Shown here in pieces: positions 7,107-24,444 of a DNA stretch of 26,470 nucleotides (the stretch's first letter is position 1; the number at the start of each line of letters is the position of its first letter). This stretch comes from a virus. The position numbers and the translations under genes were made by a program. Under the pieces are notes generated by a model, which had not been told where the DNA came from, searched no databases, and saw only the letters and a program-made list of their open reading frames with translations. The stretch spans positions 1 through 26,470 of the IMG/VR virus record IMGVR_UViG_3300029319_000412; one strand, written 5' to 3'.

Positions 7107-7420
7107 TGGATCTATTATACTTCATTCTTGCCTCTTGGGGCATGACTCAAATCTTAGTTTACGGAACAATTTTTGAAAATCAACGCGATTGGATTATGGA
7201 AAAATCTGATTGGCTTGGAACACTTATCCACTGTCCTATGTGCACAGGTTTTTGGGTTGGTGTTTTTTTGTTTGGAATAAATGGGTTTACAGAACTATTT
7301 AATTTTGAGTATAATATCGCTAATTTGCTAATTTTGGGATGTATTTCGTCTGCGACATCATATGCCTTTAATGTAGTTGTTAGCGATAGTGGTATAAAAC
7401 TTAATCACATTAGTGAATAG
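7106..7420 (+). CDS. DUF1360-like small membrane protein
   Basis: The product has 104 residues and three likely membrane helices at about 4-22, 48-65 and 70-92. Between the first two lies HCPMCTGFWVG (C43, C46), the signature of the DUF1360 family of small phage and bacterial membrane proteins of unknown function. An inner-membrane protein inside a prohead operon is notable. In T4 the prohead is initiated at the inner membrane with help from the membrane protein gp40, and this protein could do something similar; that is inference. Its stop lies in the ribosome site (TAGGAG) of the short frame that follows. Confidence 0.75.
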   Translation: MDLLYFILASWGMTQILVYGTIFENQRDWIMEKSDWLGTLIHCPMCTGFWVGVFLFGINGFTELFNFEYNIANLLILGCISSATSYAFNVVVSDSGIKLNHISE

Positions 7421-10217: not shown

Positions 10218-10288
10218 AAAAATATCTAATTCTTCTCGCAAGTTGTTAATATGTGACATTTTAGTCGCACCAAATCTAATTCTCAAAA

Positions 10289-10297
10289 CTATTTATA
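10289..10297 (+). promoter_or_regulatory. Candidate late promoter box CTATTTATA
   Basis: This is an exact copy of the motif that recurs in the intergenic gaps of this window. It lies 94 nt before the long fibre gene and, unlike most other copies, before rather than after the hairpin terminator of its gap. Confidence 0.5.
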
Positions 10298-10323
10298 TAT
10301 GAGCGCTATCATGGCGTTCACTC

Positions 10324-10346
10324 GCGCCTCTTGGCGCTTTTTCTTT
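10324..10346 (+). terminator. Rho-independent terminator or 5' leader hairpin
   Basis: A perfect 5-bp stem GCGCC/GGCGC with a TCTT loop is followed by TTTTTCTTT. It could end transcription from the lectin-like gene. Because the promoter-like box lies upstream of it, it could also act as an attenuator or a stabilising leader hairpin for the fibre mRNA. Confidence 0.65.
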
Positions 10347-10391
10347 AACTTTTTCTAAAATTTAATTATTAAATCTATGGAGGATTTATGA

Positions 10392-12905
10392 ATGGCTACT
10401 AATTTATCACAAACCGGATTAGAAGTGTCAGCCTCTGCCCATGCTGACATACCTACTGGTGGCACAGACAAGGTATTACTTTACGCTTCTGGTTCAGGAG
10501 CTGCAACTAGGCTTTATGTTAAGTCTGGTAATAATACACAAAAACAACTTGGCTTTGACATCGATCAATTCGATGCTCTTGGCGGAACAGGCGTTGATCA
10601 GGCAGATCACTTCATCTTTTCTGATGGCGGCACTGAAAAGAAAATTACTTTTTCTAACATGGAAGATGCAATCTTCGGAAATGTTTCCGGTGACGCAACC
10701 ATCGCCGCTGGCGGAGCTTTGACAATCGCTAACGACGCTGTTGAGCAAGCAATGATTGCAGACGACGCAGTTGGCGCTGACCAGCTTGCCTCTAACGCTG
10801 TTGTTAACGCTTCTATTGCTTCTAACGCTGCAATCGACATGGACAAGCTTGATGGTGGATCTTTGGCTTCATCCTTGAGTGACCTTGCACAAGGTGACTT
10901 GCTCTACGCAGGTGATGTTGATGACTCCAATAACCTTAAGTCAATCACCTTCTCCAACCTCGAAGATGCAATCTTCGGAAATGTCTCTGGTGATGCTACA
11001 ATCGCTGCTGGTGGTGCTTTAACAATCGCTGCTCAAGCAGTTGAAAACAGCATGCTTGCTGATGACGCTGTTGGTGCTGACGAGTTGGCTGCTAATGCAG
11101 TTGTCAACGCTTCTGTTGTTGATGGCGCACTTAAAGCTGACAAGCTCGACCTTGATGGTTCAACCGATATTGGCGCAGATCTTGCTGATGCTGACTTGAT
11201 GATCGTTGACGATGGAGCAGGTGGAACAAATCGTGTTGCTGCTTTGAGTCGTGTAAAGAAGTACATCTACTCTGCAATGAGTGGAGACGCAACTGCATCT
11301 GACACTGGCGCTCTTACAATCGCAGCTAATGCTGTAGAAGGTTCCATGCTTAACTCAAACGCCGCTGGTGACGGTCTTGGATATGAGTCTAATGCACTCG
11401 TTGTTCAGGTTTCTGGCGCTGTTCATATCACTAGTGATAAGGTTGCTTTATCTGGATCTATTGCCGGTACTGGTCTCACCTACACTGGTGGAGTAAACAG
11501 TATTGCTACTCTCGCCCTTGACATTGATGAGCTTTCTGCTAAGGGAGACGCCAGCCTTCACCAGACACAAGACCACTTCTTAGTATCTGACAACGGAACT
11601 GAAAAGAAGATTTCTTTCTCTAACCTTGAAGATGCAATCTTTGGTAATGTCTCTGGCGATGCAACAGTTGCCGCTGGTGGTGCTTTGACCATTGCTGCTG
11701 ACGCTGTTGAAAGCGGAATGCTTAATGACAATGTTATTTCTGGTCAAACAGAATTAGCTTCCGATGCTCTTAATGCTGCTGATGAGATGATGATTTCTGA
11801 CGGTGGAACTCTTAAGAAGATCGGCGTTGACAACCTTTTCAAGGATGGTCCGGGTCTTCTTTCTGCGGCTGATGTTGATGTTTCTGCTGACCACATCGTG
11901 TTCCTTGATGGCGGAGCAACTGGCGATGCTAAGATTGAATCCATTAATGACCTTGCGACTGGAATGGCTGGTGACGGTCTTTCTGCTGGATCTGGTCAAC
12001 TTGCAGTTAGCGTTGACGATAGTTCAATTGAGACTAACTCTGATGCCCTCCGCGTCAAGGCTGGTGGTATTCAAACTTCAATGCTTGCTGATGATGCCGT
12101 TGATGCTGATAAGCTTGCTTCTAACGCTGTTGTAAACGCTTCTGTTGCTTCCAACGCTGCAATCGCAGCCACTAAGGTTAATTTCAGTGTTGACCTCGGC
12201 GGAAGTATTTTGTTCGGTACTCAAGCGGATGATACTGTTGCTTTCACTGGACCAATCAAGGCTGGTGGTAACACAATCGCTGACAGTGGAAACAATGCTG
12301 CTATTGCCCTTGATGGATCTGGCGGTATGAGCACTCTCGGTGGATTCGGCGGCGGATCTGGTATCACTTTCGCTTCCTCTGGCGGAGCACAGTTCGCTAC
12401 TGCTGTTACAGTCAACAAGAGCGATGGATCTATGTCCAACGACTTCAAAGTTTTCGGTGACACTGCTGGGGCACACTTCATGTACGATGCTTCTGCTGAC
12501 AAAGGTCTATACCACAATGGAACTGCTCAAGTCCTAGAGCTTGGAACATCTGCAAATGGATTTGCTATTGAAGTTGCAAACCTTGCTGGCGATGCTGGTA
12601 AGATCAAAGCAACTGCTTTTGTGACTTATTCAGATGAGTCCCTTAAGGAAGAAGTAACTGCTATGGACAACGCTCTCAATGCAGTCATGAACCTTAACGG
12701 CGTTGAATTCACTTGGAAGAACTCCGGGCAGAGAGACTTCGGTTTCCTCGCGCAAGAAGTTAAGAATGTGATTCCACAAGCTGTATCCGTAGGTAACGAC
12801 GGAATTCACGGTGTTGACTACTCAAGACTTACTTCTGTTCTCGTAGAGGCTGTTAAGGCACAACAAGTTCAGATCGAAGAATTGAAAGCACTTCTCAAGA
12901 AGTAA
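10392..12905 (+). CDS. Long repetitive fibre protein with S74 chaperone domain
   Basis: The product has 837 residues. An ATG at 10388 opens only four codons; GGAGG at 10379 is best placed for the ATG at 10392. The body is Ala/Asp/Gly-rich with repeated units such as NLEDAIFGNVSGDAT and SMLADDAVGADELA, typical of elongated trimeric fibres. Residues about 747-837 form an S74 chaperone domain with an intact site (S747-D748...K752), then FTWKNSGQRDFGFLAQEV and a terminal coiled coil, so self-cleavage after trimerisation is expected. Codon use favours C-ending codons as in the capsid gene. With its own promoter-like box and terminator this points to high expression, perhaps a multi-copy head fibre rather than a rare tail fibre. 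Confidence 0.8.
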   Translation: MATNLSQTGLEVSASAHADIPTGGTDKVLLYASGSGAATRLYVKSGNNTQKQLGFDIDQFDALGGTGVDQADHFIFSDGGTEKKITFSNMEDAIFGNVSGDATIAAGGALTIANDAVEQAMIADDAVGADQLASNAVVNASIASNAAIDMDKLDGGSLASSLSDLAQGDLLYAGDVDDSNNLKSITFSNLEDAIFGNVSGDATIAAGGALTIAAQAVENSMLADDAVGADELAANAVVNASVVDGALKADKLDLDGSTDIGADLADADLMIVDDGAGGTNRVAALSRVKKYIYSAMSGDATASDTGALTIAANAVEGSMLNSNAAGDGLGYESNALVVQVSGAVHITSDKVALSGSIAGTGLTYTGGVNSIATLALDIDELSAKGDASLHQTQDHFLVSDNGTEKKISFSNLEDAIFGNVSGDATVAAGGALTIAADAVESGMLNDNVISGQTELASDALNAADEMMISDGGTLKKIGVDNLFKDGPGLLSAADVDVSADHIVFLDGGATGDAKIESINDLATGMAGDGLSAGSGQLAVSVDDSSIETNSDALRVKAGGIQTSMLADDAVDADKLASNAVVNASVASNAAIAATKVNFSVDLGGSILFGTQADDTVAFTGPIKAGGNTIADSGNNAAIALDGSGGMSTLGGFGGGSGITFASSGGAQFATAVTVNKSDGSMSNDFKVFGDTAGAHFMYDASADKGLYHNGTAQVLELGTSANGFAIEVANLAGDAGKIKATAFVTYSDESLKEEVTAMDNALNAVMNLNGVEFTWKNSGQRDFGFLAQEVKNVIPQAVSVGNDGIHGVDYSRLTSVLVEAVKAQQVQIEELKALLKK
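10647..10730 (+). repeat. Fibre repeat unit 1
   Basis: First of three near-identical 84-bp units (28 residues, core NMEDAIFGNVSGDAT then AAGGALTIA) inside the long fibre gene. The others lie 300 and 966 bp downstream. Confidence 0.85.
10947..11030 (+). repeat. Fibre repeat unit 2
   Basis: Second copy of the 28-residue unit (NLEDAIFGNVSGDAT then AAGGALTIA). The protein is almost identical to unit 1, while synonymous third positions differ, so the repeat is kept at protein level. Confidence 0.85.
11613..11696 (+). repeat. Fibre repeat unit 3
   Basis: Third copy (NLEDAIFGNVSGDAT then VAAGGALTIA). A more decayed version (MSGDATASDTGALTIA) lies near 11277, between units 2 and 3. Confidence 0.85.
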
Positions 12906-12920
12906 TACTTTTTGATAACC

Positions 12921-12950
12921 GAGGGCAGGGATCTGCGGGTCTCTGCCCTC
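12921..12950 (+). terminator. Terminator after the long fibre gene
   Basis: An 11-bp stem with one G-U pair (GAGGGCAGGGA with TCTCTGCCCTC) closes an 8-nt loop, followed by the T-rich ACCTTCTTCTATTT. It lies 15 nt after the fibre stop. The tail is not a pure T run, so some read-through is likely. Confidence 0.75.
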
Positions 12951-12958
12951 ACCTTCTT

Positions 12959-12967
12959 CTATTTATA
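12959..12967 (+). promoter_or_regulatory. Candidate late promoter box CTATTTATA
   Basis: An exact copy of the recurring motif, directly after a terminator. It ends only 2 nt before the ATG of the next small gene, so a transcript starting a few bases downstream would lack that ATG or begin at it. Confidence 0.45.
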
Positions 12968-12969
12968 AT

Positions 12970-13224
12970 ATGAAAATAGCATCTAGAAAAGATATATTAA
13001 AATATATAAAATCAGTTGATTCCGACTATCGAGCTGACCAAAATGTCATTTATGCTGAAAGAGCTTTTATTGCCAACACCGTGGTTCAATGGTGTATACA
13101 CCAAGTCAATATAAAAAAAATGAGTCCCGGAGAAATGGACTTTTACTTACAAGCAATAACCTCATTTTTACAAGGAAAAACAACCATATATTGGGACGAA
13201 GAATCTAACCTTGTGATATCCTAG
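12970..13224 (+). CDS. Small unknown protein before the scaffold gene
   Basis: The product has 84 residues with an alpha/beta look. N-terminal helices (SRKDILKYIKSV; ERAFIANTVVQWCIHQ) are followed by GEMDFYLQAITSFLQGKTTI and a final strand YWDEESNLVIS. Small proteins with a similar FLQG...YW ending occur near capsid genes of marine T4-like phages, without known function. No Shine-Dalgarno sequence precedes the ATG, and the promoter-like box lies right against it. Translation may therefore depend on read-through transcription or a leaderless mRNA. Confidence 0.6.
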   Translation: MKIASRKDILKYIKSVDSDYRADQNVIYAERAFIANTVVQWCIHQVNIKKMSPGEMDFYLQAITSFLQGKTTIYWDEESNLVIS

Positions 13225-13293
13225 AATAAAATTCCTTTTTTTGTACCTTTTAGGCATATGCTAACTAATTATTACTGGAAATTTATCCTTTTT

Positions 13294-13302
13294 CTACTTA
13301 TA
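13294..13302 (+). promoter_or_regulatory. Candidate late promoter box CTACTTATA
   Basis: One mismatch from the recurring CTATTTATA motif. It lies in the 96-nt gap before the scaffold gene, followed by AACTTAGGAG and the ATG 18 nt after the box. This is a suitable spacing for a short leader with its ribosome site. Confidence 0.4.
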
Positions 13303-13320
13303 AACTTAGGAGATTATACT

Positions 13321-14370
13321 ATGTCATCCATGTTAGAGCAAGCGATTGTCGATGCCACTGCTTTAAAAGAAGCCGCTATGAAAAATGCAGAAGCAGCCAT
13401 TATTGAGAAGTACTCACAAGAGATCAAAGAAACAGTAGATACAATGTTGAGTGAAACAGAGGCAGATTACGCAGCCCTCGATGAGCCAGAGTTTAACCGA
13501 GACCCAGAAGCAGAAGAAACTATTGGATCTGGTGTTGTTAGTTTAGATCTTACTGAATTAACCAAAATGGCAAGAGAAAGTCTGGGAGAAGAGGTAGACT
13601 TCGCAGAAATGCTTACACACGAAGATTTAGCAGAAGACATTGAAGCAGATGCAACCTCTTCTGAGACAACCGGCGAAGTTGGAAACATTGATGAAGAGAT
13701 CGATCTTCAAAACTTATTCGAATCAGAGGAAATTGAAGAGAACGAGAAAGTAGAAGAGGATATGGAAGAAATTGAAATTTCGGAAGAACAATTAAAAGAT
13801 ATCGTAGAAAAGCTCACCTTAGACTTTCACCCAGAAAAAACAGGTTGGCTAGAAAAGCCACAATATGAGACTCGTCAAGCAGAACTTGAAGCAGAAGCTC
13901 TTGCTGCTCACGCCGAGGAAGATAAGGAAGAAATGTCTAAGCTAATGGAAGAACTCCAGCTTTCTAAAAAAGAAAATAAATCCCTTAAGAAACAACTTAA
14001 AAAAATGGCAGAAGGTATTGAAGAAATGCAAACCTTTGCCAATAGGGTAAAAGGAACTTTAAGTGAAGTAAACCTGCAAAATGCTAGGTTACTTTATACA
14101 AACAAGGCTTTGAGTAGTGACTCTCTGAATGGGCGGCAAAAAGAAAAACTTGTCGAGGCTATCTCAAATTCTAAAACAGTTGAAGAGGCAAAAGTAATTT
14201 ATGAAACCCTTCAAGGCGCAGTGGGAGAGCAAAGATCACACAGTAATGCTCCGAAATCACTCACCGAGGCGGTAACAAAGCGTTCTTCAGCTTTGCTTAA
14301 AGGCAGCGAAGCTAAACCGGAAATTGATCCAAATATGGATAGAATGAAGCGTTTGGCTGGAATTAATTAA
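13321..14370 (+). CDS. Prohead core scaffold protein (gp22-like)
   Basis: The main internal scaffold, around which the capsid protein assembles and which the protease then destroys. The start at 13321 has TTAGGAG at the right distance; the frame opens earlier at 13258, but that part is hydrophobic and lacks a ribosome site. The 349-residue product is highly acidic in its middle (about 100-160), has a Lys/Glu coiled coil near 200-240, then NLQNARLLYTNKALSSDSLN and KTVEEAKVIYETL, and ends MDRMKRLAGIN, all typical of the gp22 family. T4 gp22 is shorter (269). It lies 23 nt before the capsid gene. Confidence 0.85.
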   Translation: MSSMLEQAIVDATALKEAAMKNAEAAIIEKYSQEIKETVDTMLSETEADYAALDEPEFNRDPEAEETIGSGVVSLDLTELTKMARESLGEEVDFAEMLTHEDLAEDIEADATSSETTGEVGNIDEEIDLQNLFESEEIEENEKVEEDMEEIEISEEQLKDIVEKLTLDFHPEKTGWLEKPQYETRQAELEAEALAAHAEEDKEEMSKLMEELQLSKKENKSLKKQLKKMAEGIEEMQTFANRVKGTLSEVNLQNARLLYTNKALSSDSLNGRQKEKLVEAISNSKTVEEAKVIYETLQGAVGEQRSHSNAPKSLTEAVTKRSSALLKGSEAKPEIDPNMDRMKRLAGIN

Positions 14371-14393
14371 ACTATAAAAGGAGAAATAAAACT

Positions 14394-16175
14394 ATGTCAG
14401 TTTTAGATAAATTAACAGAAGGTATCGTTAATCGTGATCTCCAGAAGGAAGGTGCTGCCCTGCTTGCGAAGTGGGAAAACACTGGACTTCTTGAAGGATT
14501 GAATAACGAGCGTTCAAAAGACAGCATGGCTCGTTTGCTTGAAAACCAAGCGAAAGAGCTTTTGAGAGAAGCATCCACCATGGCTGGTGGAGATGTTGAA
14601 GGTTTCGCAGCAGTTGCGTTTCCAATCGTTCGCCGTGTATTCGGTAGCCTGATCGCTAACGATCTCGTAAGCGTTCAACCAATGAGTCTCCCATCGGGTC
14701 TCATCTTCTTCCTTGACTTTGCTTACACTGATAGCAAAGCAGCAGCAGGTGCGGAAGTAGGAAAATCACTTTACGGTGGAGGAGTTGTTGGTCAAGAACT
14801 CACAGGTGGTGTTGATCTTGGAATGACTACGGCAGCCGCATCCGTAGAGGCATCCAATCCAGAAAAAGGCTTTTATGGTCTTAACAATGGATATTCATCC
14901 CCAACTGCATCAGTGGATATGCAGAAGGCATTAACTAGAGTTGTGACAGGTGTGTATCCGGGCGATGAAAGCACTAACATTCACAAGTTGTGTTTGTATG
15001 ATGTGGATATCGCATCCGGTTCTCTTGTTTCTATCGCAACTTTCGAAGAAAGCTTAATTACGGGATCAAACGGAACTCCATTCAACTCTGACAACTTGAT
15101 TGCTTTAGATATTGATTTGGTTGGTGAAGCTGGTGCAAGTGATGATGTAGCTAAACTTCAAAGAAGATTGACACATAGGTCTGATACCGCAGGCTTGTTA
15201 AACCTTGTTTTTGTTGCTACAGCTTCCGCAGCCGATAATGCACAGAAAAACCTTAATGATGCTATTGACAGGGCCCACGGAACGCACAAAATGTCGTTCG
15301 CTCTTGTTGATAACTTCGCAGGTGATCCAAAGGCAGCAGCCGCTAATTCAATCGGAGCTGTTGCTGGTGATGATGACTGGGGATTGGAAGGCAAATCAGA
15401 AATCCCAGAGATCGACATCAAAGTTGATTCTGTCAGCGTAACCGCAGTAACCAAGAAGCTCAAGGCTAAGTGGACACCAGAATTGGGGCAAGATCTCAAT
15501 GCTTATCACAACCTTGATGCAGAAGTTGAGCTTACAAGCATCCTTTCTGAGCAAATTGCTTTGGAAATCGATAGAGAAATCCTTAAGGATCTTGTTGCAG
15601 GCGCAACTGCTGGTACTTACTACTGGTCACGTCGTCCGGGTCGTTTCCTCGTAAGAGACACTGGTGCTCAGGTCGGCGGCAATACTGCCAACGAAGGATT
15701 GTTCGGTGCAGACTTCACTGGTACCGTTTCCGAGTGGTACGAGACATTGGTTGAAACTCTTAACGATGTATCGGCGCAAATCCACAGAAAGACACTTCGT
15801 GGTGGTGCTAACTTCGTTGTTTGTTCACCAGAAGTTGCCAATATCCTTGAGTTCACTGCTGGCTTTAGAGCTAATGTAACTGCTGATTCTGACAGAGGTA
15901 CTGTTGGTGCAGTTAATGTTGGTTCCTTGAGCAAGAAGTGGGATGTGTATGTTGACCCTTACTTCCCAAGAAATGTTATTCTCATTGGGCGTAAAGGTGG
16001 ATCATTCCTCGAAAGCGGATATGTGTACGCACCATATGTACCACTTCAGGTAACTCCAACTATCTTCGGTGTCGAGGACTTCGTACCTCGTAAGGGTGTC
16101 ATGACCCGTTACGCCAAGAAGATGGTAAGACCTGATATGTATGGTCTTGTTATTTGTAGAGATCTTCTTGGATAA
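14394..16175 (+). CDS. Major capsid protein (gp23-like)
   Basis: This is the main shell protein. The N-terminus (residues 1-59) resembles the T4 gp23 delta region: LLAKWENTGLLEG and SMARLLENQAKELLREA. After it comes the conserved core FPIVRRVFGSLIANDLVSVQPMSLPSG (about 75-101). Cleavage by the protease is expected after E59 in L-R-E|A, matching the (L/I)-x-E rule and T4's cut after E65. The 593 residues exceed T4 gp23 (521), with likely surface insertions in the middle. The C-terminal part (VYVDPYFPRNVILIG; YAPYVPLQVTPT; FVPRKGVMTRYAKK) is also gp23-like. AAGGAG precedes the start. CGT and C-ending codons are enriched, as expected for the most abundant protein. Confidence 0.95.
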   Translation: MSVLDKLTEGIVNRDLQKEGAALLAKWENTGLLEGLNNERSKDSMARLLENQAKELLREASTMAGGDVEGFAAVAFPIVRRVFGSLIANDLVSVQPMSLPSGLIFFLDFAYTDSKAAAGAEVGKSLYGGGVVGQELTGGVDLGMTTAAASVEASNPEKGFYGLNNGYSSPTASVDMQKALTRVVTGVYPGDESTNIHKLCLYDVDIASGSLVSIATFEESLITGSNGTPFNSDNLIALDIDLVGEAGASDDVAKLQRRLTHRSDTAGLLNLVFVATASAADNAQKNLNDAIDRAHGTHKMSFALVDNFAGDPKAAAANSIGAVAGDDDWGLEGKSEIPEIDIKVDSVSVTAVTKKLKAKWTPELGQDLNAYHNLDAEVELTSILSEQIALEIDREILKDLVAGATAGTYYWSRRPGRFLVRDTGAQVGGNTANEGLFGADFTGTVSEWYETLVETLNDVSAQIHRKTLRGGANFVVCSPEVANILEFTAGFRANVTADSDRGTVGAVNVGSLSKKWDVYVDPYFPRNVILIGRKGGSFLESGYVYAPYVPLQVTPTIFGVEDFVPRKGVMTRYAKKMVRPDMYGLVICRDLLG

Positions 16176-16197
16176 CCCAAGTTAATCTCAAGTAACA

Positions 16198-16238
16198 CAA
16201 AGAGCCTCGTCATTTATTTGGCGGGGCTTTTTTATTTC
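16198..16238 (+). terminator. Strong rho-independent terminator after capsid gene
   Basis: A stem AGCCTCGTC/GGCGGGGCT with two G-U pairs (extendable through AAAG/TTTT) closes an ATTTATTT loop and is followed by six T residues. It lies about 25 nt after the capsid stop. Confidence 0.85.
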
Positions 16239-16264
16239 TATACTGCTTTAAACGCTGTCCAAGA

Positions 16265-16273
16265 CTAATTATA
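16265..16273 (+). promoter_or_regulatory. Candidate late promoter box CTAATTATA
   Basis: One mismatch from CTATTTATA. It lies after the capsid terminator and 38 nt before the gp13-like gene, whose AAGGAG ribosome site lies in between. Confidence 0.4.
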
Positions 16274-16311
16274 GATAGCGTATTATATTTTGAATTAAGG
16301 AGATCTAAAAT

Positions 16312-17601
16312 ATGGCTCTTCCAACCTTGACACCGGCAAGCAATACTAGTGTGTCTATATTGCCAGCAACAGGTACAGCAGGAAATGTTAATAGTGCATC
16401 TAGTCCATTGCCATATGGCATATATGTTACCAAAGCGTCTACCACTGCTGCTGCAACTGCCTTTAAAGAAGGGGCGGCAGATCAGGTATCATATGTTTAC
16501 CAGAAGCTCGGTGGAGAAATACTCGACATTGAATTGTCAGAATATCAAGTGTATGCTGCCTATGAAGAGGCTGTATTAGAATATTCTTATATTGTCAATG
16601 TTCATCAGGCAAAGAATACAATGCCAAGTCTCCTTGGTAATCCAACAGGCACATTTGACCAAGATGGCGAAATGACAAATGGGGATGCACTTAGTGGCTC
16701 CAACATTGAAGCAAGATATCCAACATTTAATTTTGAATATGCCAAAAAGGTTGGGAATACACTATCAACCGAAGGAGGCTTTGGTGGTGAAGTGCCGATA
16801 TATTCTGCCTCGTTCACAACTGAAGTGGGCAAGCAAGATTATGATCTTCAGGCAATAATTGAAAATACATCTACAACAGACTCATCCAGCCCTTTCTATA
16901 ATGCTGTTGGAAACAATAGAGTAACAATTAGAAAAGTGTTTTATAAGACACCACAAGCAATGTGGAGATTCTATGGATATTACGGTGGACTCAATACAGT
17001 GGGCAATCTTTCTTATTATGGTCAGTATGCCGATGATTCTACATTTGAGGTAATCCCAGTTTGGCAAAACAAAGCGCAAGCCATGGCATTTGAAGATGCG
17101 CTTTGGACTAGAACATCCCACTTTTCTTACGAGATTAAGGACAACAAGCTAAGAATATTCCCAGATACAACCCACGTCTCACCAACAAAAATGTGGGTAG
17201 AATTCAGTGTAAAATCAAGTGCTTGGGACGATGCAGAAGATAAGACGGGTGCCAGAGGCATCAACAACATGAATACCTTACCTTTTGAAAACATAGAGTA
17301 TCTAAACATTAATTCGATTGGAAAGCAATGGATTAGAAGATTTGCCCTTGCACTTTCAAAAGAAATGCTAGGAAACATAAGAAGCAAATTTGCTACAATT
17401 CCAATTCCGGGCAACAATGTGACCTTAAATGGACCAGCACTTGTTTCAGAAGGAAAAGCAGAACAAACTGCTTTAAGAGATGAATTAAAAACAGTATTGG
17501 ATGAGATGACCTATCCAAAGTTAGTAGAACAAACTGCACAAGTAGTGGAGAATACAACAAAAACAATGCAGGGAGTTCCTATTCCTGTTTTCGTAGGATA
17601 A
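16312..17601 (+). CDS. Neck / head-completion protein (gp13-like)
   Basis: The product has 429 residues. The C-terminal 120 residues carry the gp13-type pattern: a helix IGKQWIRRFALALSKEMLG, then IPIPGNNVTLNGPALVSEGK, then a helical stretch through RDELKTVLDEM. In T4, gp13 joins gp14 to close the filled head at the portal. T4 gp13 is shorter (309). Here the N-terminal half holds an extra Ser/Thr-rich region and a Tyr-rich beta part (WRFYGYYGGLNTVGNLSYYG). Location right after the capsid gene and before the gp14- and gp15-like genes supports the call. An AAGGAG ribosome site precedes the ATG. Confidence 0.7.
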   Translation: MALPTLTPASNTSVSILPATGTAGNVNSASSPLPYGIYVTKASTTAAATAFKEGAADQVSYVYQKLGGEILDIELSEYQVYAAYEEAVLEYSYIVNVHQAKNTMPSLLGNPTGTFDQDGEMTNGDALSGSNIEARYPTFNFEYAKKVGNTLSTEGGFGGEVPIYSASFTTEVGKQDYDLQAIIENTSTTDSSSPFYNAVGNNRVTIRKVFYKTPQAMWRFYGYYGGLNTVGNLSYYGQYADDSTFEVIPVWQNKAQAMAFEDALWTRTSHFSYEIKDNKLRIFPDTTHVSPTKMWVEFSVKSSAWDDAEDKTGARGINNMNTLPFENIEYLNINSIGKQWIRRFALALSKEMLGNIRSKFATIPIPGNNVTLNGPALVSEGKAEQTALRDELKTVLDEMTYPKLVEQTAQVVENTTKTMQGVPIPVFVG

Positions 17602-17607
17602 TAAAAA

Positions 17608-18099
17608 GTGGCAAAGAAGAATAAATGGACACAACCTAGTAATCCTCCACCTCCTCTCTTTACAGGAAAGAAAGAGAGAGATCTCGTCAAGAAGATCAAT
17701 GACGAGATTATAGAGAGAGTTGTAGGGCAAACTGTTATGTATTATCCTATAAGTTTAGAACACACTAATTTTCATCCACTTTATGGCGAAGCAATAAATA
17801 AGACCTTTTTGCCACCTATTAGAGTTCATGCACTTGTTCAATGGCAAGGAATAGCCTCTACCAATACCAACATAGGCATTGATAAGGTGTCTTCTATAGA
17901 TGTATTTTTTCACAAAAGAAGATTAGTTGAAGACCAAGATTTGTATGTTAGGGAAGGAGATTTCGTCTTATATGGACAATTCTTATATGAGATATTATCT
18001 CTAAACGAGCCGAAGGAAATATTCGGACAAGTCGATCATAAAATGGAAATTTTAGCAAAATGCACAAGAGCAAGAAGGGGGGTTTTTGATGCCACATGA
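17608..18099 (+). CDS. Neck protein (gp14-like)
   Basis: The product has 163 residues from a GTG start at 17608, 6 nt after the previous stop. Features that fit the gp14 neck family are RVVGQTVMYYPIS (about 31-43), HPLYGEAINKTF (53-64), SSIDVFFHKRRLVEDQDLYVREGDFV and a final FGQVDHKMEILAKCTRAR. T4 gp14 is longer (256), so this is a compact version. With gp13 it would form the neck that seals the head and receives the tail. It overlaps the next gene by 11 nt. Confidence 0.65.
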   Translation: MAKKNKWTQPSNPPPPLFTGKKERDLVKKINDEIIERVVGQTVMYYPISLEHTNFHPLYGEAINKTFLPPIRVHALVQWQGIASTNTNIGIDKVSSIDVFFHKRRLVEDQDLYVREGDFVLYGQFLYEILSLNEPKEIFGQVDHKMEILAKCTRARRGVFDAT

Positions 18100-18997
18100 T
18101 GATAAGTACAGGGACCTTCCGCCAGAACCAGCATCACTTAGCTATCCTCAAGGGCTAAAGGAGGTTAATTTTGCTCCGTCAACATTAGAGACTATAGATT
18201 ATGCCATCTATGATTATATGAATGACGAATTTGATTTTCACATAACCACCAATAAGGGCTTTGAGAAAGTGCCTGTTATATGGGTTGCCTCTGAAAGAGC
18301 TTACCAAATTAAAGACAGAAAAGAACTCCGTGATGATGAAGGGGCAATTATTATGCCTATTATCACCATTGAGAGAACATCTGTTGCCAAAAAACTAAAC
18401 GTAAAAGGGTCTTATTATGGGGCACAATTGATAAATCAGGACGAGAAAGGCGGCGGTGTTATCATCGGAAGAAAAATTCAACAAAAGAAAACTTCTGAAT
18501 TTAACAATGCAGATCAAAACAGGAAATATCCCGCTTCTGCTCCTTTGGCAGGACCAAAATTTATTCGCAGAACAGATAAAAGAAAAGTTGTATATGAAAC
18601 AATTTCTATACCACCAATCGTTTACCTTGATATAAACTACAAAATAATTTTAAGAACCGAGTATCAGCAACAAATGAACGAACTAACCCAAGTATTCGCT
18701 ACCAGACCGGGAACAATAAACAGCTTGCTTTTAAAAAGAGACGGGCACAAATACGAAGCATTTGTGCAGGAAAACTTCGGACAAAACAACAACATCAGTG
18801 CAATGGACAACCAAACAAGAAAGTTTGAGACTTCCATTGATATTAATGTTCTTGGGTATGTTGTTGGCGAAGGAGACAACGAAGATAGACCTAAATTCTC
18901 AATTAGAGAAAATGCTGTTGAAGTCAAATTTCAGAGAGAAAAGGCTATTTTTGGAGATATTCCAGAAACAAAAGATGCCAGTGGGTATAGAGAATAA
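18089..18997 (+). CDS. Tail completion / sheath stabiliser (gp15-like)
   Basis: The product has 302 residues from the ATG at 18089, with GGGGGG at 18077-18082 as ribosome site; a TTG at 18086 is the alternative. The architecture parallels T4 gp15 (272 residues): an N-terminal segment ending VPVIWVASERAYQ (compare VPITYASKEHF), then IIMPIITIERTS, then PPIVYLDINYKIILRTEYQQQMNELTQVF, then a DNQTRKFETSIDINVLGYV block and a C-terminal tail. In T4, gp15 caps the finished tail and joins it to the neck. The position, after gp13/gp14-like and before sheath, fits. A charged loop (about 120-165) is not seen in T4. Confidence 0.75.
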   Translation: MPHDDKYRDLPPEPASLSYPQGLKEVNFAPSTLETIDYAIYDYMNDEFDFHITTNKGFEKVPVIWVASERAYQIKDRKELRDDEGAIIMPIITIERTSVAKKLNVKGSYYGAQLINQDEKGGGVIIGRKIQQKKTSEFNNADQNRKYPASAPLAGPKFIRRTDKRKVVYETISIPPIVYLDINYKIILRTEYQQQMNELTQVFATRPGTINSLLLKRDGHKYEAFVQENFGQNNNISAMDNQTRKFETSIDINVLGYVVGEGDNEDRPKFSIRENAVEVKFQREKAIFGDIPETKDASGYRE

Positions 18998-19121
18998 AAT
19001 AGTCAATCTTTTTGCTTATCTAGTTATATTTAATAATTTTGTCCTTTCTAATTGCTCCTTACTATTTATTAAAGAAAAAATGTTTTTTATTCCAAGAGAA
19101 TACAAAAGGAGACTCTAAGTA
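18998..19121 (+). other. 124-nt AT-rich intergenic leader before the sheath gene
   Basis: The gap holds no gene and no convincing hairpin terminator. It contains a promoter-like box at 19062 and the sheath gene's AAAAGGAGA ribosome site at about 19104. Confidence 0.5.
19062..19070 (+). promoter_or_regulatory. Candidate late promoter box CTATTTATT
   Basis: One mismatch from CTATTTATA, 51 nt before the sheath gene, in an AT-rich gap. Confidence 0.4.
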
Positions 19122-22100
19122 ATGTCAGCAAAGAATTTCAAGTTTGTTTCCCCCGGCGTTTTCATCAATGAGATTGACAATTCTCAATTGCCGAAAGCAG
19201 CACCAGCAGTGGGACCAGTTGTTATTGGTCGTTTTAGAAGAGGACCAGCCTTTATACCAACAAGAGTAGAATCACTTTCAGAGTTGATTCAAATTTTTGG
19301 AGAGCCAATCAGGGGCGATGAGGCATCCGATGTTTGGAGAGGTGGTCTTCCAACTGGACCAACATATGGTGCATATGCTGCCGCTGCATGGCTCAAAAAT
19401 GGTGCTCCAATTACTATTGTTAGAATTTTGGGCGATCAGCACGAAGAAGCCGTAGTTGATAGCGCAAAGGCTGGCTGGTCCATGGGCTCAACGCCAACGA
19501 ATGCTGGATCCTCTGGTGGAGCGTATGGTCTTTTCTTGATGAACTCTGGAAACTTCGCAGAAGGCGTAACTGGATCTGCAAACGGAGTCTTGGCTGCGAC
19601 TTGGTACTTTGATAGTGGCGGAATCATTCTCTCTGGTTCAATCGCCGGAGCAGCAACTGACGTTGTTTCTGGCTCGGGTGTTCTTATCGAAGCAGATGGA
19701 AGCCCATCAGCAGCTAAATTTACAGCAGAATTGTTTGATGAAAATGGTGGTGATGGTGCTGGAACTCCAACAGATGTAGTTACATTTAGCTTTGACAAAA
19801 ACTCAAAGTATTACATCAGAAAGGTTTTTAATACAAACCCAACAAGAACAAATTCGAGCCTTATTTCTGGTGATGCGGCTAGGAAAAAATATTTCTTAGG
19901 AGAAACATACGAGCAAGCTGTAAAAGGCACTCTTAGTGGCACTAAAGTATACGGTGTTGTTTTGCCGCTTGGCGATAGTGTAGGAACTAAGGGTGGACAA
20001 AACTTTAAGAAAAAAGCAACCAGATCTCAGACTGGCTGGTTTGTGTCGCAGGACATAAGAACAACCGCAGGAAGTGGAACTCCGGGTGACAATACTTTAA
20101 TTCCAGCATACGACGCAGATAATGTTGCAATTTGTCCTCGCTTGTTTAAGTTCCATGTTTTAAGCGAGGGAGAAACAGAACAGCGTTCTTACAAAATATC
20201 TATTGAAAATGTTAAATACTCCAAGAGAGTAGATATTGACCCATACGGGTCTTTCTCGGTTGTTTTAAGATCTATTTATGATAGCGATAATGCCCCAAGG
20301 ATAGTTGAGAGATATGATAACTGTAACTTGAATCCTAATTCTGCAAACTACGTTGCAAAGAAAATTGGAGATGTTTACTACGAATGGGATAATACAAAGA
20401 AAAGACTAGTAGAATATGGAACATATCCAAATAGGTCTAATTTCATTAGGATTCAAATGGCTAGCGAGGTCGATTTGGGTCAAGCAGATTCTGAGTTGCT
20501 TCCATTCGGTGCTCAGGGACCTGTCAAAAGAACAGGGTTCTCAATACAGTTTGATTCTGGCTCTGCCAGTGGTATCTATGGTACAGGATCTTTCTTGGCA
20601 GAATCCTCTTCATATGGAGACGCCGATGTATCACTGGACATATTAAATGTTAGGAGATCACCAGCGCAATCATTTAAGTGGTTTGACCAAGCTGGCGGGG
20701 ATGCAGCTGCACCAAATAACGCTATTATTTGGGGTGGTGGTGGACAAAACGGCGCAGTCGCTAGTGCTACAGACAAGCTTAATGCAGCAAGTATAACTGA
20801 CCTCGATGAATTCACATTTAACGTCCCAGCATCTGTTGGCGGATCAGGCACAACGATTAGGGTTATATTAAAAGACGCTCTCAATGACGCAGCCGCAGGA
20901 GTAATCCACGTAAAGAGAACTGGGACCCCATCCGATGACGCTGCTAGCATTATATTGGCTTTTGATGGTACCGCTGACGAAACAAAAGTGAGATACGGAA
21001 ATGCGGCTGCTGGGGATTCAACAAATGGTGTTGCCGGTTTAGACGCTTCAGCGGGAACGGGAAATAAGATTACTCTTACTGCAACTCAACAAGGAACAGC
21101 AGGGAATACTATTTCAATTGTTAATGTTGCGGGAACAATAAATGACGCTGCTGTATCATTTGGAGGCGGCATCGATCCAACCCCAGCACCGGGACAAGCA
21201 CAGTTCCTTGCATCCGTTAAATTCCCAGACTTCTTCCTTAGAGATGGTGCCGAAGATGGTAATTTGAGTGATCCAACACTTGCTTACTTTGGTTTTAGCA
21301 CAACTAGTGGATCAACAGATACTACATTTGATGCTAGTAACTTAGATCTCTTAAGGGCGCTACCAGCAGACTATGGTCAATTCGCTACTAGCGATTACAC
21401 TAAGAGAATGTTCATGTTCTCGCTAGACGATATTAGTGCTAGTTTCGATGGTCTAAGCGGGTCTTACTCGTACTCTTCTGGCTCTAGGGCTGCTGGTACA
21501 TCAGTAACTGCAAGAAATGGTTCCTACAGAGACATTTTGGATGCAGGATATGACAGGTTTACCGTACCTCTTTTCGGAGGATTTGATGGGCTTGATGTAA
21601 GAGAAGCAGAGCCATTTAACATCAGAGCGTTGCCTAGTGATGCTACAGAAAGAACATATGCTATGTACTACTCCGTAAAGAAAGCAATTGACATTTTAGC
21701 AGACCCAGAGTTTGTAGAAATGAACTTGGTTGCTGTTCCGGGAATTAGAAACGAATCACTTACACAACACCTTGTTAATGTTTGTGAAGATCGTGGCGAT
21801 GCCTTGGCAATTATTGACCCACTAGGGGGATACAAGCCAGCATCTGACGAGGCTGGTTCAGAGCAAAGTAGAATTACAACTGATCATGTTAAAGAAGTTG
21901 TCGATAATATGCAGGAAAGGGCGATCAACTCCAGTTATGGATGTGCGTACTATCCTTGGGTTAGAATTAATGATGATATTGGTGGCGGATCTCTTTGGGT
22001 CCCGCCATCTGTTGCAGCAATTGGAACAATGGCATTTTCAGATAAGCAAAGGGCACCTTGGTTTGCACCAGCTGGATTTGCTAGAGGCGGCTTAAGCAGG

Positions 22101-22577
22101 GGCGCAGCAGGCTTCCCTGTAACCAATGTGCGCTCTAAGCTCACTGCAAAGGAAAGAGATGATCTTTATGAAGTAAACATCAATCCAATTGGGTCTTTCC
22201 CAAGCGAAGGAATTGTTGTGTTTGGTCAAAAGACTCTGCAAGTCACACCCTCCGCATTGGACAGAATTAATGTTAGGCGATTGATGATACTTGTTAAAAA
22301 GCAAGTTTCTAGGATTGCAGCGAACTTATTATTTGAGCAAAATGTGGAAGCTACTTGGGACAAATTTAAAGGTCAAGTAGACCCTCTTTTGAGCAATATT
22401 AGAACAGGGTTTGGATTAACAGACTTCAAAGTAGTGCTCGACGAAACAACCACCACCCCAGAATTGGTAGATAGAAACATCATGTATGCTAAGATTTTCT
22501 TAAAACCAGCAAGAGCAATTGAATATATCGCAATTGACTTCAACATTACAAACACTGGTGCAAGTTTTGACGATTAA
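19122..22577 (+). CDS. Tail sheath protein (gp18-like), unusually large
   Basis: The contractile sheath subunit. The N-terminus (SPGVFINEIDNSQLPKAAPA; GPVVIGRFRRGPAFIPT) and the C-terminal core (MNLVAVPGIRNESLTQHLVN; RGDALAIIDPLGG; ALDRINVRRLMILVKK; YAKIFLKPARAIEYIAIDFN) are typical. At 1151 residues it is far longer than T4 gp18 (659). The extra length lies in the middle and includes a Gly/Ala/Thr-rich module at about residues 550-690 (FTFNVPASVGG; then LTATQQGTAGNTISIVNVAG) that looks like an inserted beta domain. It is probably exposed on the tail surface, since the core that contracts is C-terminal. It has its own promoter-like box and ribosome site. Confidence 0.93.
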   Translation: MSAKNFKFVSPGVFINEIDNSQLPKAAPAVGPVVIGRFRRGPAFIPTRVESLSELIQIFGEPIRGDEASDVWRGGLPTGPTYGAYAAAAWLKNGAPITIVRILGDQHEEAVVDSAKAGWSMGSTPTNAGSSGGAYGLFLMNSGNFAEGVTGSANGVLAATWYFDSGGIILSGSIAGAATDVVSGSGVLIEADGSPSAAKFTAELFDENGGDGAGTPTDVVTFSFDKNSKYYIRKVFNTNPTRTNSSLISGDAARKKYFLGETYEQAVKGTLSGTKVYGVVLPLGDSVGTKGGQNFKKKATRSQTGWFVSQDIRTTAGSGTPGDNTLIPAYDADNVAICPRLFKFHVLSEGETEQRSYKISIENVKYSKRVDIDPYGSFSVVLRSIYDSDNAPRIVERYDNCNLNPNSANYVAKKIGDVYYEWDNTKKRLVEYGTYPNRSNFIRIQMASEVDLGQADSELLPFGAQGPVKRTGFSIQFDSGSASGIYGTGSFLAESSSYGDADVSLDILNVRRSPAQSFKWFDQAGGDAAAPNNAIIWGGGGQNGAVASATDKLNAASITDLDEFTFNVPASVGGSGTTIRVILKDALNDAAAGVIHVKRTGTPSDDAASIILAFDGTADETKVRYGNAAAGDSTNGVAGLDASAGTGNKITLTATQQGTAGNTISIVNVAGTINDAAVSFGGGIDPTPAPGQAQFLASVKFPDFFLRDGAEDGNLSDPTLAYFGFSTTSGSTDTTFDASNLDLLRALPADYGQFATSDYTKRMFMFSLDDISASFDGLSGSYSYSSGSRAAGTSVTARNGSYRDILDAGYDRFTVPLFGGFDGLDVREAEPFNIRALPSDATERTYAMYYSVKKAIDILADPEFVEMNLVAVPGIRNESLTQHLVNVCEDRGDALAIIDPLGGYKPASDEAGSEQSRITTDHVKEVVDNMQERAINSSYGCAYYPWVRINDDIGGGSLWVPPSVAAIGTMAFSDKQRAPWFAPAGFARGGLSRGAAGFPVTNVRSKLTAKERDDLYEVNINPIGSFPSEGIVVFGQKTLQVTPSALDRINVRRLMILVKKQVSRIAANLLFEQNVEATWDKFKGQVDPLLSNIRTGFGLTDFKVVLDETTTTPELVDRNIMYAKIFLKPARAIEYIAIDFNITNTGASFDD

Positions 22578-22589
22578 AAAATAAATTAA

Positions 22590-22605
22590 ATACTATTTAT
22601 AGTAT
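22590..22605 (+). promoter_or_regulatory. Candidate late promoter box CTATTTATA inside a small palindrome
   Basis: The box (22593-22601) is an exact copy of the recurring motif and lies 40 nt before the tail tube gene. It sits within ATACTA-TTTA-TAGTAT, a perfect 6-bp inverted repeat that would form only a weak RNA hairpin. Confidence 0.5.
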
Positions 22606-22641
22606 AAAGAATAAAATAAACTTGAAAAGGAATTACTAACA

Positions 22642-23253
22642 ATGGGTAACACAGCATCAACTGATGGGAACGACAGCGGCTTCTGGGCTAGTGCAGTCAC
22701 AGAACCAAAAAGAAAGTATAGATTTACGCTCGCAGTTCAAGGACTTGAATCATGGACAATTACTAAAGTAAAAAGACCAAGTTTTAAGCTCACTGATAGT
22801 AGTCACATATTTTACAATCACAAATTCAATTTCCCCGGCAGGGTAGAGTGGGATCCGGTTAGTTTCACAACTGTAGACCCGATTAACCCTGACTCCACTG
22901 GTATTTTGATGAAAATGCTAATGGCTTCCGGCTATGAATTCCCAGACAAACAATTCGGAGGAGTGCAAGACACGTATAACTCTGTTAACAAGGTCAGCTC
23001 GGTTGACGCAATTAACCCTATTATAATTAAGGCATATGATGCTCAGGGAGTTTGCGTAGAAAAGTGGACTCTTAAAAATGCTTTTGTCACTAGTGTGGAC
23101 TTTGGAGAGTATGATTACAGTGCTGTAGATATGCTTAATATCCAAGTTACCTTAAAATATGACTGGGCGACATTGGAGAACATGGGCAATAGAGCACCGC
23201 TTCAAACAACACTCGCCGATGCTCCAATTCCAAATTCAGTACTTGAGCCATAA
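22642..23253 (+). CDS. Tail tube protein (gp19-like)
   Basis: The product has 203 residues and forms the inner tube of the contractile tail, on which the sheath assembles. Features of the gp19 family are KYRFTLAVQGLESWTITKVKR near the N-terminus, FNFPGRVEWDPVSFTTVDP (about 63-81), a helix with GILMKMLMASGY, then a strand-rich half with WTLKNAFVTSVDFGEYDYSA and MLNIQVTLKYDWA. T4 gp19 has 163 residues; the extra part here is an N-terminal extension and a short Pro/Ala-rich tail. It directly follows the sheath gene, as in T4. Confidence 0.92.
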   Translation: MGNTASTDGNDSGFWASAVTEPKRKYRFTLAVQGLESWTITKVKRPSFKLTDSSHIFYNHKFNFPGRVEWDPVSFTTVDPINPDSTGILMKMLMASGYEFPDKQFGGVQDTYNSVNKVSSVDAINPIIIKAYDAQGVCVEKWTLKNAFVTSVDFGEYDYSAVDMLNIQVTLKYDWATLENMGNRAPLQTTLADAPIPNSVLEP

Positions 23254-23319
23254 TAAAACTTTACATTTTTCTAAATTATGGTATAGTTATTATTGCCTTT
23301 TAAATTTTATGAGGAAATA

Positions 23320-24207
23320 ATGACAGATAGAAACAATCAAGATAGATTTAGTGGCTCCCCGCCACAAATAGAAAATGTCCCACAACAAGTACAACAAACT
23401 ATGCATGACAGTGTGCAAAGGCAGCAACAGCATATGCAGTTTGCAGTCCCAACTGAATTTGTAGATTTGCCATCAAAAGGCAAATACTACCCAGAGGGAC
23501 ATCCACTCAAAGATAAAGATTCGGTAGAAATTAAATATATGACAGCAAAAGAAGAAGATATTCTTTCTTCTACTAATTTAATCAAAAAGGGTGTTGTTTT
23601 TGAAAGGCTTTTGCAATCAGTACTGGTAGATCGAATCGATCCAAACGATTTTTTAATTGGTGATAAAAATGCTATATTAGTGTCAACTAGAATAAATGGA
23701 TATGGACCAGAGTATCAAACGGAAGTAAAGTGTCCATCTTGCTCAAACACTAGTCGATATGTTTTTGATTTAAATAACCTAACTTCAAAAATGAATATAG
23801 ATAAACAATTCATGGATTCGATGAATGTTGAAGAAACTGAAAGAGGGACCTTTAAGATTAACCTAGATAGATTAAATCATACTATAGAGGTTAAACCATT
23901 AAATGGGCATGATGAAAAGCGAATCGCTCACTTAGCCGGTATAAAAACAAAAAATAATTTTGTTGAAGGCGTTGTTACTGACACCCTTAAGACATTTATT
24001 GTCTCAGTAAATGGCGACACGAACCCAGCAACAATTGGTGCTTTTGTTGATTCTTTACCGGCTAGAGAATCTAGGACAATCCGCACAATCTATAAGCATA
24101 TTGTGCCAAAAATTGAGATTTTAAGCCCTTACTCCTGCGCTAATTGCGGCTATGAACAGGAATTGGAGGTACCGATTAACTCTGACTTTTTTTGGCCTAA
24201 CGAATGA
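23320..24207 (+). CDS. Baseplate hub / tail assembly protein (gp26-like)
   Basis: The product has 295 residues from the ATG at 23320, which has GAGGAAAT upstream; a TTG at 23293 is open but unlikely. A Gln-rich start is followed by the family signature FVDLPSKGKYYPEGHPL (47-63), VEIKYMTAKEEDIL, IKKGVVFERLLQSVLVDRID and LIGDKNAILVSTRINGYG. Two Cys pairs (C138/C141, C273/C276) probably bind one zinc. In T4, gp26 (208 residues) is needed for the baseplate hub. In related phages such proteins sit before the tape measure and may chaperone it. The 3' end carries seven T residues just before the stop and overlaps a downstream frame. Confidence 0.85.
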   Translation: MTDRNNQDRFSGSPPQIENVPQQVQQTMHDSVQRQQQHMQFAVPTEFVDLPSKGKYYPEGHPLKDKDSVEIKYMTAKEEDILSSTNLIKKGVVFERLLQSVLVDRIDPNDFLIGDKNAILVSTRINGYGPEYQTEVKCPSCSNTSRYVFDLNNLTSKMNIDKQFMDSMNVEETERGTFKINLDRLNHTIEVKPLNGHDEKRIAHLAGIKTKNNFVEGVVTDTLKTFIVSVNGDTNPATIGAFVDSLPARESRTIRTIYKHIVPKIEILSPYSCANCGYEQELEVPINSDFFWPNE

Positions 24208-24379
24208 ATATGTTCAAGGCGTTTATGAGGAAATCTTCAACCTCAAAATGCATGCAAATTGGTCATTTCAGGAGGCTTATAACCTTCCAATAGTTGTTAG
24301 AAGGTGGTTCCTGAAAAGAACAATTAAGTACTACGAAGATAAAGCAGAAGCAGAAAGAAGGGCTTTAGAGAAAAATTAG
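24152..24379 (+). CDS. Small overlapping frame after gp26-like gene (start uncertain)
   Basis: This frame is +1 relative to the gp26-like gene and overlaps its last 56 nt. From about 24194 it reads like a real protein: TNEYVQGVYEEIFNLKMHAN, FQEAYNLPIVVRRWFLKRTI, then a charged helix. The ATG at 24152 lies in conserved gp26 coding sequence without a ribosome site, and the only later in-frame ATG (24248) also lacks one and would remove conserved-looking residues. It may be made as a +1 frameshift extension of the gp26-like protein at the T run, or by coupled initiation. T4 gp51 and the lambda gpG-T type chaperones are functional comparisons, not sequence matches. Confidence 0.6.
   Translation: MNRNWRYRLTLTFFGLTNEYVQGVYEEIFNLKMHANWSFQEAYNLPIVVRRWFLKRTIKYYEDKAEAERRALEKN
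24187..24193 (+). promoter_or_regulatory. Candidate slippery T7 run
   Basis: Seven T residues read GAC-TTT-TTT-TGG in the gp26-like frame. A +1 slip lets the Phe tRNA re-pair on TTT and enters the downstream frame at GGC, 12 nt before the TGA. It could also be a site of polymerase slippage. Confidence 0.4.
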
Positions 24380-24387
24380 ATTTATTT

Positions 24388-24425
24388 ATAAGACCAAGGG
24401 CGCTAGTTTTTGGTCTTATTTTTTA
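24388..24425 (+). terminator. Rho-independent terminator after gp26-like region
   Basis: A perfect 10-bp stem ATAAGACCAA/TTGGTCTTAT with a 12-nt loop is followed by TTTTT. It lies 9 nt after the stop of the overlapping small frame. Confidence 0.85.
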
Positions 24426-24435
24426 TAATAAACAA

Positions 24436-24444
24436 CTATTTACA
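24436..24444 (+). promoter_or_regulatory. Candidate late promoter box CTATTTACA
   Basis: One mismatch from CTATTTATA. It follows the terminator and precedes AAAGGAG and the ATG at 24462 by 17 nt, the same terminator-box-ribosome-site order as before the gp13-like gene. Confidence 0.4.

What the first reader, a model, noticed from the sequence alone, without database searches (positions are those of the whole stretch)
10289..24444. Recurring CTATTTATA box in intergenic gaps: a probable divergent late promoter
Seven copies (10289, 12959, 13294, 16265, 19062, 22593, 24436), three exact and four with one mismatch, lie on the coding strand in seven of the few gaps between genes. Three follow terminators directly and several sit 17-51 nt before a ribosome site. 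T4 late promoters use TATAAATA read by the gp55/gp33/gp45 system; this box is its reverse complement plus a leading C. That suggests a differently evolved late sigma-like factor or another RNA-level signal.
Basis: partly seen in the sequence, partly recalled or inferred. Interest (0 to 1): 0.6.

Follow-up and report, generated by a model that had tools for sequence, protein, structure and literature searches.

The report
Two-part late promoter, Far-T4-like phages
Many uncultured phages related to T4 seem to switch on their virus-building genes from a two-part DNA signal that T4 does not have, probably read by a divergent phage protein (a gp55 relative with an extra DNA-binding-like domain) and apparently without the sliding clamp that T4 needs.

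Summary
The box is real. In 80 related contigs plus the window, ACTATTTA occurs 186 times in same-strand gaps (5.3 expected) and its reverse complement never. An unbiased search finds ACTA[T>A>C]TTA(T/C) in about 79% of non-redundant gaps. It heads virion operons. A second element, GGCNTTT, lies exactly 13 nt upstream, and a purine peak lies at box position 13, where T4 late promoters have their start site. The box therefore reads directly as a T4-type -13/-6 element. It is closest to Aeh1's CTAAATA with AA changed to TT at -9/-8, and is not a reversed TATAAATA. T4 late promoters lack the -33/-27 element. Large related contigs encode a gp55 homologue (about 225-235 aa) with an extra C-terminal helical domain, have family-A DNA polymerase, and have no detectable gp45 or gp33. 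Their other gaps carry host-type TTGACA/TAnnnT promoters. Best explanation: a clamp-free late promoter read by this gp55-like factor. Limits: no transcript data exist; the 26-kb window itself lacks the gp55-like gene; the sigma4 likeness of the extra domain is structural and moderate only.

The parts
10288..10295 (+). -10-like box ACTATTTA upstream of the S74 fibre gene at 10392; upstream element absent; predicted start G10301
   Evidence: box 16.7, upstream -4.1; same site in relative L002
   Evidence: the homologous gene has an exact ACTATTTA upstream in 43 of 53 loci
16264..16271 (+). -10-like box ACTAATTA upstream of the neck gene at 16312; upstream element TGCTTTA at 16244-16250; predicted start A16277
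   Evidence: homologues: 38 of 74 exact, 34 more with one mismatch
16205..16233 (+). terminator-like hairpin and T run before the 16264 box
   Evidence: sequence
19041..19047 (+). -35-like element GTCCTTT of the sheath (gp18) promoter
   Evidence: upstream score 7.0
19061..19068 (+). -10-like box ACTATTTA of the sheath gene at 19122; predicted start G19074
   Evidence: box 17.6; exact in 53 of 56 homologous loci
22592..22599 (+). -10-like box ACTATTTA upstream of the tail tube gene at 22642; weak upstream element
   Evidence: homologues 13 of 37 exact, 18 more with one mismatch
24435..24442 (+). -10-like box ACTATTTA upstream of ORF 24462; follows a terminator whose T run supplies CTTATTT at 24415-24421; predicted start A24448
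   Evidence: homologues 14 of 22 exact
1523..1530 (+). candidate intragenic site ACTACTTA with upstream GGTTTTT, ahead of the genes at 1720 and 2230 (gp17)
   Evidence: box 14.7, upstream 7.1; similar sites upstream of the gp17 gene set in G001, G003 and G005; protein conservation not excluded
7294..7301 (+). candidate intragenic site ACTATTTA upstream of the head protease gp21 gene at 7521
   Evidence: box 15.2, upstream 0.3; recurs in G001-G005; protein conservation not excluded
   Evidence: box 7.1, upstream 2.6, 4 nt from the start codon

Best explanation
The boxes are the -13 to -6 elements of late promoters of a Far-T4-like phage lineage. Late in infection the host RNA polymerase core is redirected by a phage gp55 homologue. 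Its sigma2-like domain opens the ACTATTTA box. Its extra C-terminal helical domain, absent from T4 gp55, most likely sits on the polymerase flap like sigma4 and touches GGCNTTT at -33 to -27, taking the place of the gp45 clamp and gp33 co-activator that these phages appear to lack. Shown here: the two-part element, its spacing, its strand and gene specificity, and the gp55-like gene in large relatives. Inferred: the transcription start, the protein-DNA pairing and clamp independence. Confidence by step: late promoter 0.9; read by the gp55-like protein 0.75; C-terminal domain reads the upstream element without a clamp 0.55.
For: Strand-specific box, unbiased EM, virion operon heads. Two-part architecture with sharp spacing. 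Start purine in the same register as T4 late promoters, and no comparable upstream element in T4 (PMC2988020 states none). Sites ahead of 22 of 45 late genes behind gaps of 40 nt or more and 0 of 28 early genes (p 9e-4 for genes behind such gaps). A separate TTGACA/TAnnnT class in the other gaps of the same contigs. gp55 homologue in G001-G003 and abundant in viral contigs; its N-domain aligns with T4 gp55 (E 2e-5) and folds like it (7d7c Z 10.3). Exact two-part pattern in 13 of 16 contigs picked by the gp55-like gene, none in T4 or P-HM2. Box changes at -9/-8 fall on bases gp55 holds in pockets (PMC7892883), and pocket residues differ accordingly. No gp45, gp33 or T4 pol B detected; pol A present.
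Against: No 5' ends mapped. The window and 14 of 17 MCP-selected records show no gp55-like gene (shorter records). The upstream element is weak or missing at two window sites (10288, 22592). The C-terminal domain has no sequence similarity to sigma4, and Z 7.8 for a helical domain may be a common arrangement. Homologues in immuto and Mel-JY01 go with a TATTTAT core but without GGNNTTT. Absence of the clamp is a negative homology search in contigs of unknown completeness.
Confidence: 0.75

Rival explanations
1. Late promoters read by the host's own sigma factor with an atypical -10, as reported for Ma-LMM01 (PMC5780444), or a Bacteroidetes-type TTTG/TAnnTTTG promoter.
For: The upstream element lies where a sigma70 -35 hexamer would, and GGCNTTT partly resembles TTGNC. 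immuto's boxes (TATATTTAT) resemble the Bacteroidetes -7 element (from memory).
Against: The same contigs carry a separate, strongly enriched CTTGACA-N17-19-TAnnnT class in the other gaps, and TTGACA occurs in none of the 38 late-box gaps. The C at -12 is the most constrained position (2.56 bits). TTTG-N18-20-TAnnTTTG does not occur in these gaps.
Confidence: 0.12
2. T4-like late promoter with another phage activator or a very diverged clamp: the gp55-like sigma reads the box only, and GGCNTTT binds a separate protein.
For: The C-terminal domain is not recognisable as sigma4 by sequence. The upstream element is absent in the immuto and Mel-JY01 patterns although their gp55-like proteins also have a C-terminal domain.
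Against: No gp33, gp45 or bacterial beta clamp found. Whole-length matches to sigma factors out to residue 233.
Confidence: 0.2
3. RNA-level signal (transcript processing or translation control) in the leaders.
For: The box lies in leaders, always in the sense direction.
Against: Distance to the start codon varies widely, there is a fixed DNA spacing to an upstream element that is often a terminator tail, and the purine register is that of T4 late starts.
Confidence: 0.04
4. Antisense T4 late promoters (TATAAATA on the other strand).
For: TATTTATA is the exact reverse complement of TATAAATA.
Against: The most constrained positions, A and C at the left, are outside that 8-mer, and the position after the box is T or C. 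The start and -35 registers fit only the direct strand.
Confidence: 0.02

Closest known systems
T4 late promoter TATAAATA with gp55/gp33/gp45 (PMC2988020, PMC7892883)
   Same: Position -13 to -6, +1 purine register, late virion genes, gp55 homologue
   Different: A/C at -13/-12 and TT at -9/-8; a conserved -33/-27 element; no detectable clamp or gp33; gp55-like protein has an extra C-terminal domain
Aeromonas phage Aeh1 late promoter CTAAATA (PMC1524935)
   Same: C at -12, with a diverged gp55 in that phage
   Different: AA, not TT, at -9/-8; no upstream element described there
Bacterial sigma70-family two-part promoters
   Same: Two elements with about sigma70 geometry; candidate sigma with domain 2 plus a C-terminal helical domain
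   Different: Different -10 and -35 sequences; phage-encoded factor with no PF04542 match
Ma-LMM01 late promoters (PMC5780444)
   Same: T4-related phage without the T4 clamp/gp55/gp33 set for late transcription
   Different: Reported as host SigA-like, and no gp55 found there
Far-T4 phages (PMC4360716)
   Same: Probably the lineage: RM378 and immuto are among the nearest cultured MCPs
   Different: That paper detected no T4 core transcription-regulation genes; no phylogeny was built here

Membership tests
T4-type late promoter | 8-bp -10-like box at -13 to -6 with start about 6 nt downstream | tested here: met
   Register equals T4's by the purine peak; start sites not mapped
T4-type late promoter | Sequence TATAAATA or (a/g)CTAAATA | tested here: not met
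   ACTA[T>A>C]TTA
T4-type late promoter | No conserved -35 element | tested here: not met
   GGCNTTT at fixed spacing
T4-type late promoter | Located upstream of late genes | tested here: met
T4-type late promoter | Activation by gp45 clamp and gp33 | tested here: not met
   No gp45 or gp33 homologue in nine large contigs, with T4 and P-HM2 as positive controls; contigs may be incomplete
T4-type late promoter | Transcription in vitro by gp55 holoenzyme | not testable with these tools
   Needs wet laboratory work
gp55 family (late sigma) | Sigma2 homology domain aligned with T4 gp55 | tested here: met
   phrog_234 E 2e-5, hhalign E 2.4e-5, 7d7c Z 10.3
gp55 family (late sigma) | C-terminal clamp-binding motif (T4 SLDFLYE) | tested here: not met
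   Alignment ends in ...KKWERGEI and the like
Sigma70 region 4 domain (C-terminal part of the gp55-like protein) | Sigma4 fold | tested here: inconclusive

The most novel reading that the evidence does not exclude
A large, widespread T4-related lineage runs late transcription without a sliding clamp: a single gp55-like factor with an added sigma4-like domain reads a two-part promoter. It would be the natural one-piece late sigma whose absence the T4 late-transcription review asks about (PMC2988020), with -10 pockets adjusted to a new box.
Probability: 0.5. Interest if true: 0.82.

Novelty: new variant of a known kind. Interest (0 to 1): 0.68.

Why it matters
The Far-T4 study (PMC4360716) found no T4 core transcription-regulation genes in these abundant aquatic phages. 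This gives them a late promoter and a candidate late sigma factor. If clamp independence holds, coupling of late transcription to replication through gp45, a textbook feature of T4, is not general to T4 relatives, and the order in which the -35 contact was lost or gained becomes testable. The pairing of changed bases (-9, -8) with changed pocket residues is a ready specificity experiment. The motif also marks operon heads in a very large number of uncultured contigs.

Tried and rejected
Reverse-complement reading of TATAAATA: rejected on register and strand. RNA-level signal: rejected on fixed DNA spacing and variable leader length. Host sigma70 or Bacteroidetes promoters: the early class found in the same contigs differs. 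PF04542 (sigma70 region 2) gave nothing in ten contigs; phrog_12791 gave nothing but rang in no control. Pfam had no match to the gp55-like protein above cut-off. A PDB sequence search had no meaningful hit. Foldseek alone had no match at E 0.001. Literature searches for the motif string and for Far-T4 late promoters found nothing relevant in the held library. hhalign of the C-terminal domain against four E. coli sigma4 regions was negative (the query set was small).

Full report
What the window is. It is a complete 26,470-base virus record holding a T4-like virion cluster on one strand. By family it includes a head protease, gp23, sheath, a weak tail tube match below Pfam's cut-off and a T4_baseplate protein, and a neck adaptor. 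The nearest cultured major capsid proteins are those of Flavobacterium phage immuto, Microcystis phage Mel-JY01 and Rhodothermus phage RM378, all below 60% identity. That places it near the Far-T4 phages, but no tree was made.

The observation. In the window alone the 9-mer is about twofold above shuffles. Among 456 same-strand gaps of 81 loci, ACTATTTA occurs 186 times against 5.3 expected from second-order statistics, and its reverse complement not once. An unseeded EM search on 241 de-duplicated gaps returns ACTA[T>A>C]TTA(T/C), with about 79% of gaps holding it and a score of 694 against 33-39 for shuffled gaps. The site is gene-specific: exact boxes precede 53 of 56 sheath genes, 43 of 53 scaffold-position genes, 38 of 74 neck genes (34 more with one mismatch), and almost none of the genes inside operons.

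Anatomy. De-duplicated sites show a second element, GGCNTTT, at box positions -20 to -14. It shows in 114 sites without a terminator and more strongly in 49 that follow one. Sliding it by two bases turns a mean score of +2.6 into -2.8. Where a terminator precedes, its G-rich arm and T run fall in this register (TTT at -16 to -14 in 40 of 49), so the terminator tail seems to double as the upstream element. At box position 13 there is a purine peak, 81%. The same analysis of T4's late region gives 84% purine at the same position and no comparable upstream element. If the box is -13 to -6 as in T4 (PMC1524935), the purine is +1 and GGCNTTT is -33 to -27. Aeh1 uses CTAAATA from -12 (PMC1524935); the present box is that with TT for AA at -9/-8. 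The reverse-complement resemblance to TATAAATA is coincidental.

In the window. A matrix trained without the window and its three nearest relatives finds 8 + strand sites scoring 12 or more, none on the - strand, against 0.33 per simulated strand. The intragenic ones recur in relatives but may reflect protein conservation.

Who reads it. T4 gp55's PHROG family detects one protein in each of the three largest contigs from the MCP search. They are mostly about 225-235 residues. The first half aligns with T4 gp55 (profile E 2e-5), and its model matches T4 gp55 in the open complex (7d7c, Z 10.3). The second half, missing in T4 gp55, contains a near-invariant FNKKAIYLYxREITGLNTKQVVNNLNK stretch and matches the sigma4 end of sigma-H 3mzy only by fold (Z 7.8, 2.5 A, 74 residues). 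In T4 gp55 the bases -12, -9 and -8 are held in pockets (PMC7892883). These are box positions that changed. Pocket residues N13, H95 and T99 are T, F and S in nearly all family members, while Y97 is kept. This pairing is suggestive only.

Context. In five large contigs, two-part sites fall 72 on the coding strand and 1 on the other. Late genes behind a gap of 40 nt or more have a site in 22 of 45 cases, annotated early genes in 0 of 28 (late versus early genes behind such gaps p = 9e-4). The exact two-part pattern occurs in 13 of 16 contigs chosen independently by the gp55-like gene, always on one strand per contig, with no hits for the reversed control and none in T4, P-HM2, immuto or Mel-JY01. 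Gaps without the late box carry a separate class, CTTGACA-N17-19-TAnnnT, outside the gp17-to-gp26 block, which is what host-sigma early promoters would look like. Nine large contigs have family-A DNA polymerase and no detectable T4 pol B, gp45, bacterial beta clamp or gp33. T4 and P-HM2 ring for pol B, gp45 and gp33.

Mechanism and limits. The best reading is a late promoter used by host core polymerase plus the gp55-like factor, with the upstream element contacted by its C-terminal domain in place of clamp activation. The promoter itself is strongly supported. The reader protein is supported by homology and co-occurrence: the window is too short to contain it, and only 3 of 17 MCP-selected records, the three largest, show it. 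Clamp independence rests on negative searches in contigs of unknown completeness. No transcript has been mapped. immuto and Mel-JY01 share the TATTTAT core but not the GGNNTTT pattern, so the upstream element may be specific to the window's sublineage.

Literature. The T4 review states that T4 late promoters have no -35 conservation and asks why there is no fused late sigma (PMC2988020). The Far-T4 study found no T4 core transcription-regulation genes (PMC4360716). No paper found in the held library describes this promoter; most subscription papers and all preprints are outside that library.

Noticed in passing
window 10288-10346: The 10288 box is followed, before the start of ORF 10392, by a hairpin with a T run (GCGCCTCTTGGCGCTTTTTC); relative L002 has the same order. 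A promoter followed at once by a terminator-like hairpin suggests attenuation or a short RNA.
   Followed up: no
window 1523-1530 and 7294-7301: Two strong boxes lie inside genes ahead of the gp17 and gp21 genes and recur in relatives; promoter or protein conservation cannot be told apart yet.
   Followed up: partly
49 terminator-preceded sites in L001-L080, e.g. L008 and L012: Terminator arms and T runs supply the upstream promoter element in fixed register, an economical terminator-promoter overlap.
   Followed up: partly
G001-G005, e.g. G001 coding-strand coordinates 164602-180737: A separate cTTGACA-N17-19-TAnnnT promoter class sits in gaps outside the virion block (18 in G001 against 0.4 expected).
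   Followed up: yes
G001-G005: Genes are almost all on one strand (e.g. 204 of 223 called ORFs in G001), replication and virion blocks included.
   Followed up: no
window 384-1301 and 10392-12905: Two tail-fibre-like proteins; the second carries a Peptidase_S74 (chaperone of endosialidase) C-terminal domain, and both match the same fibre PHROGs.
   Followed up: no
L202:19977-20675 (phage immuto) and L203:11956-12726 (phage Mel-JY01): Annotated hypothetical proteins in two cultured phages are gp55-like, which gives laboratory systems for the test.
   Followed up: partly
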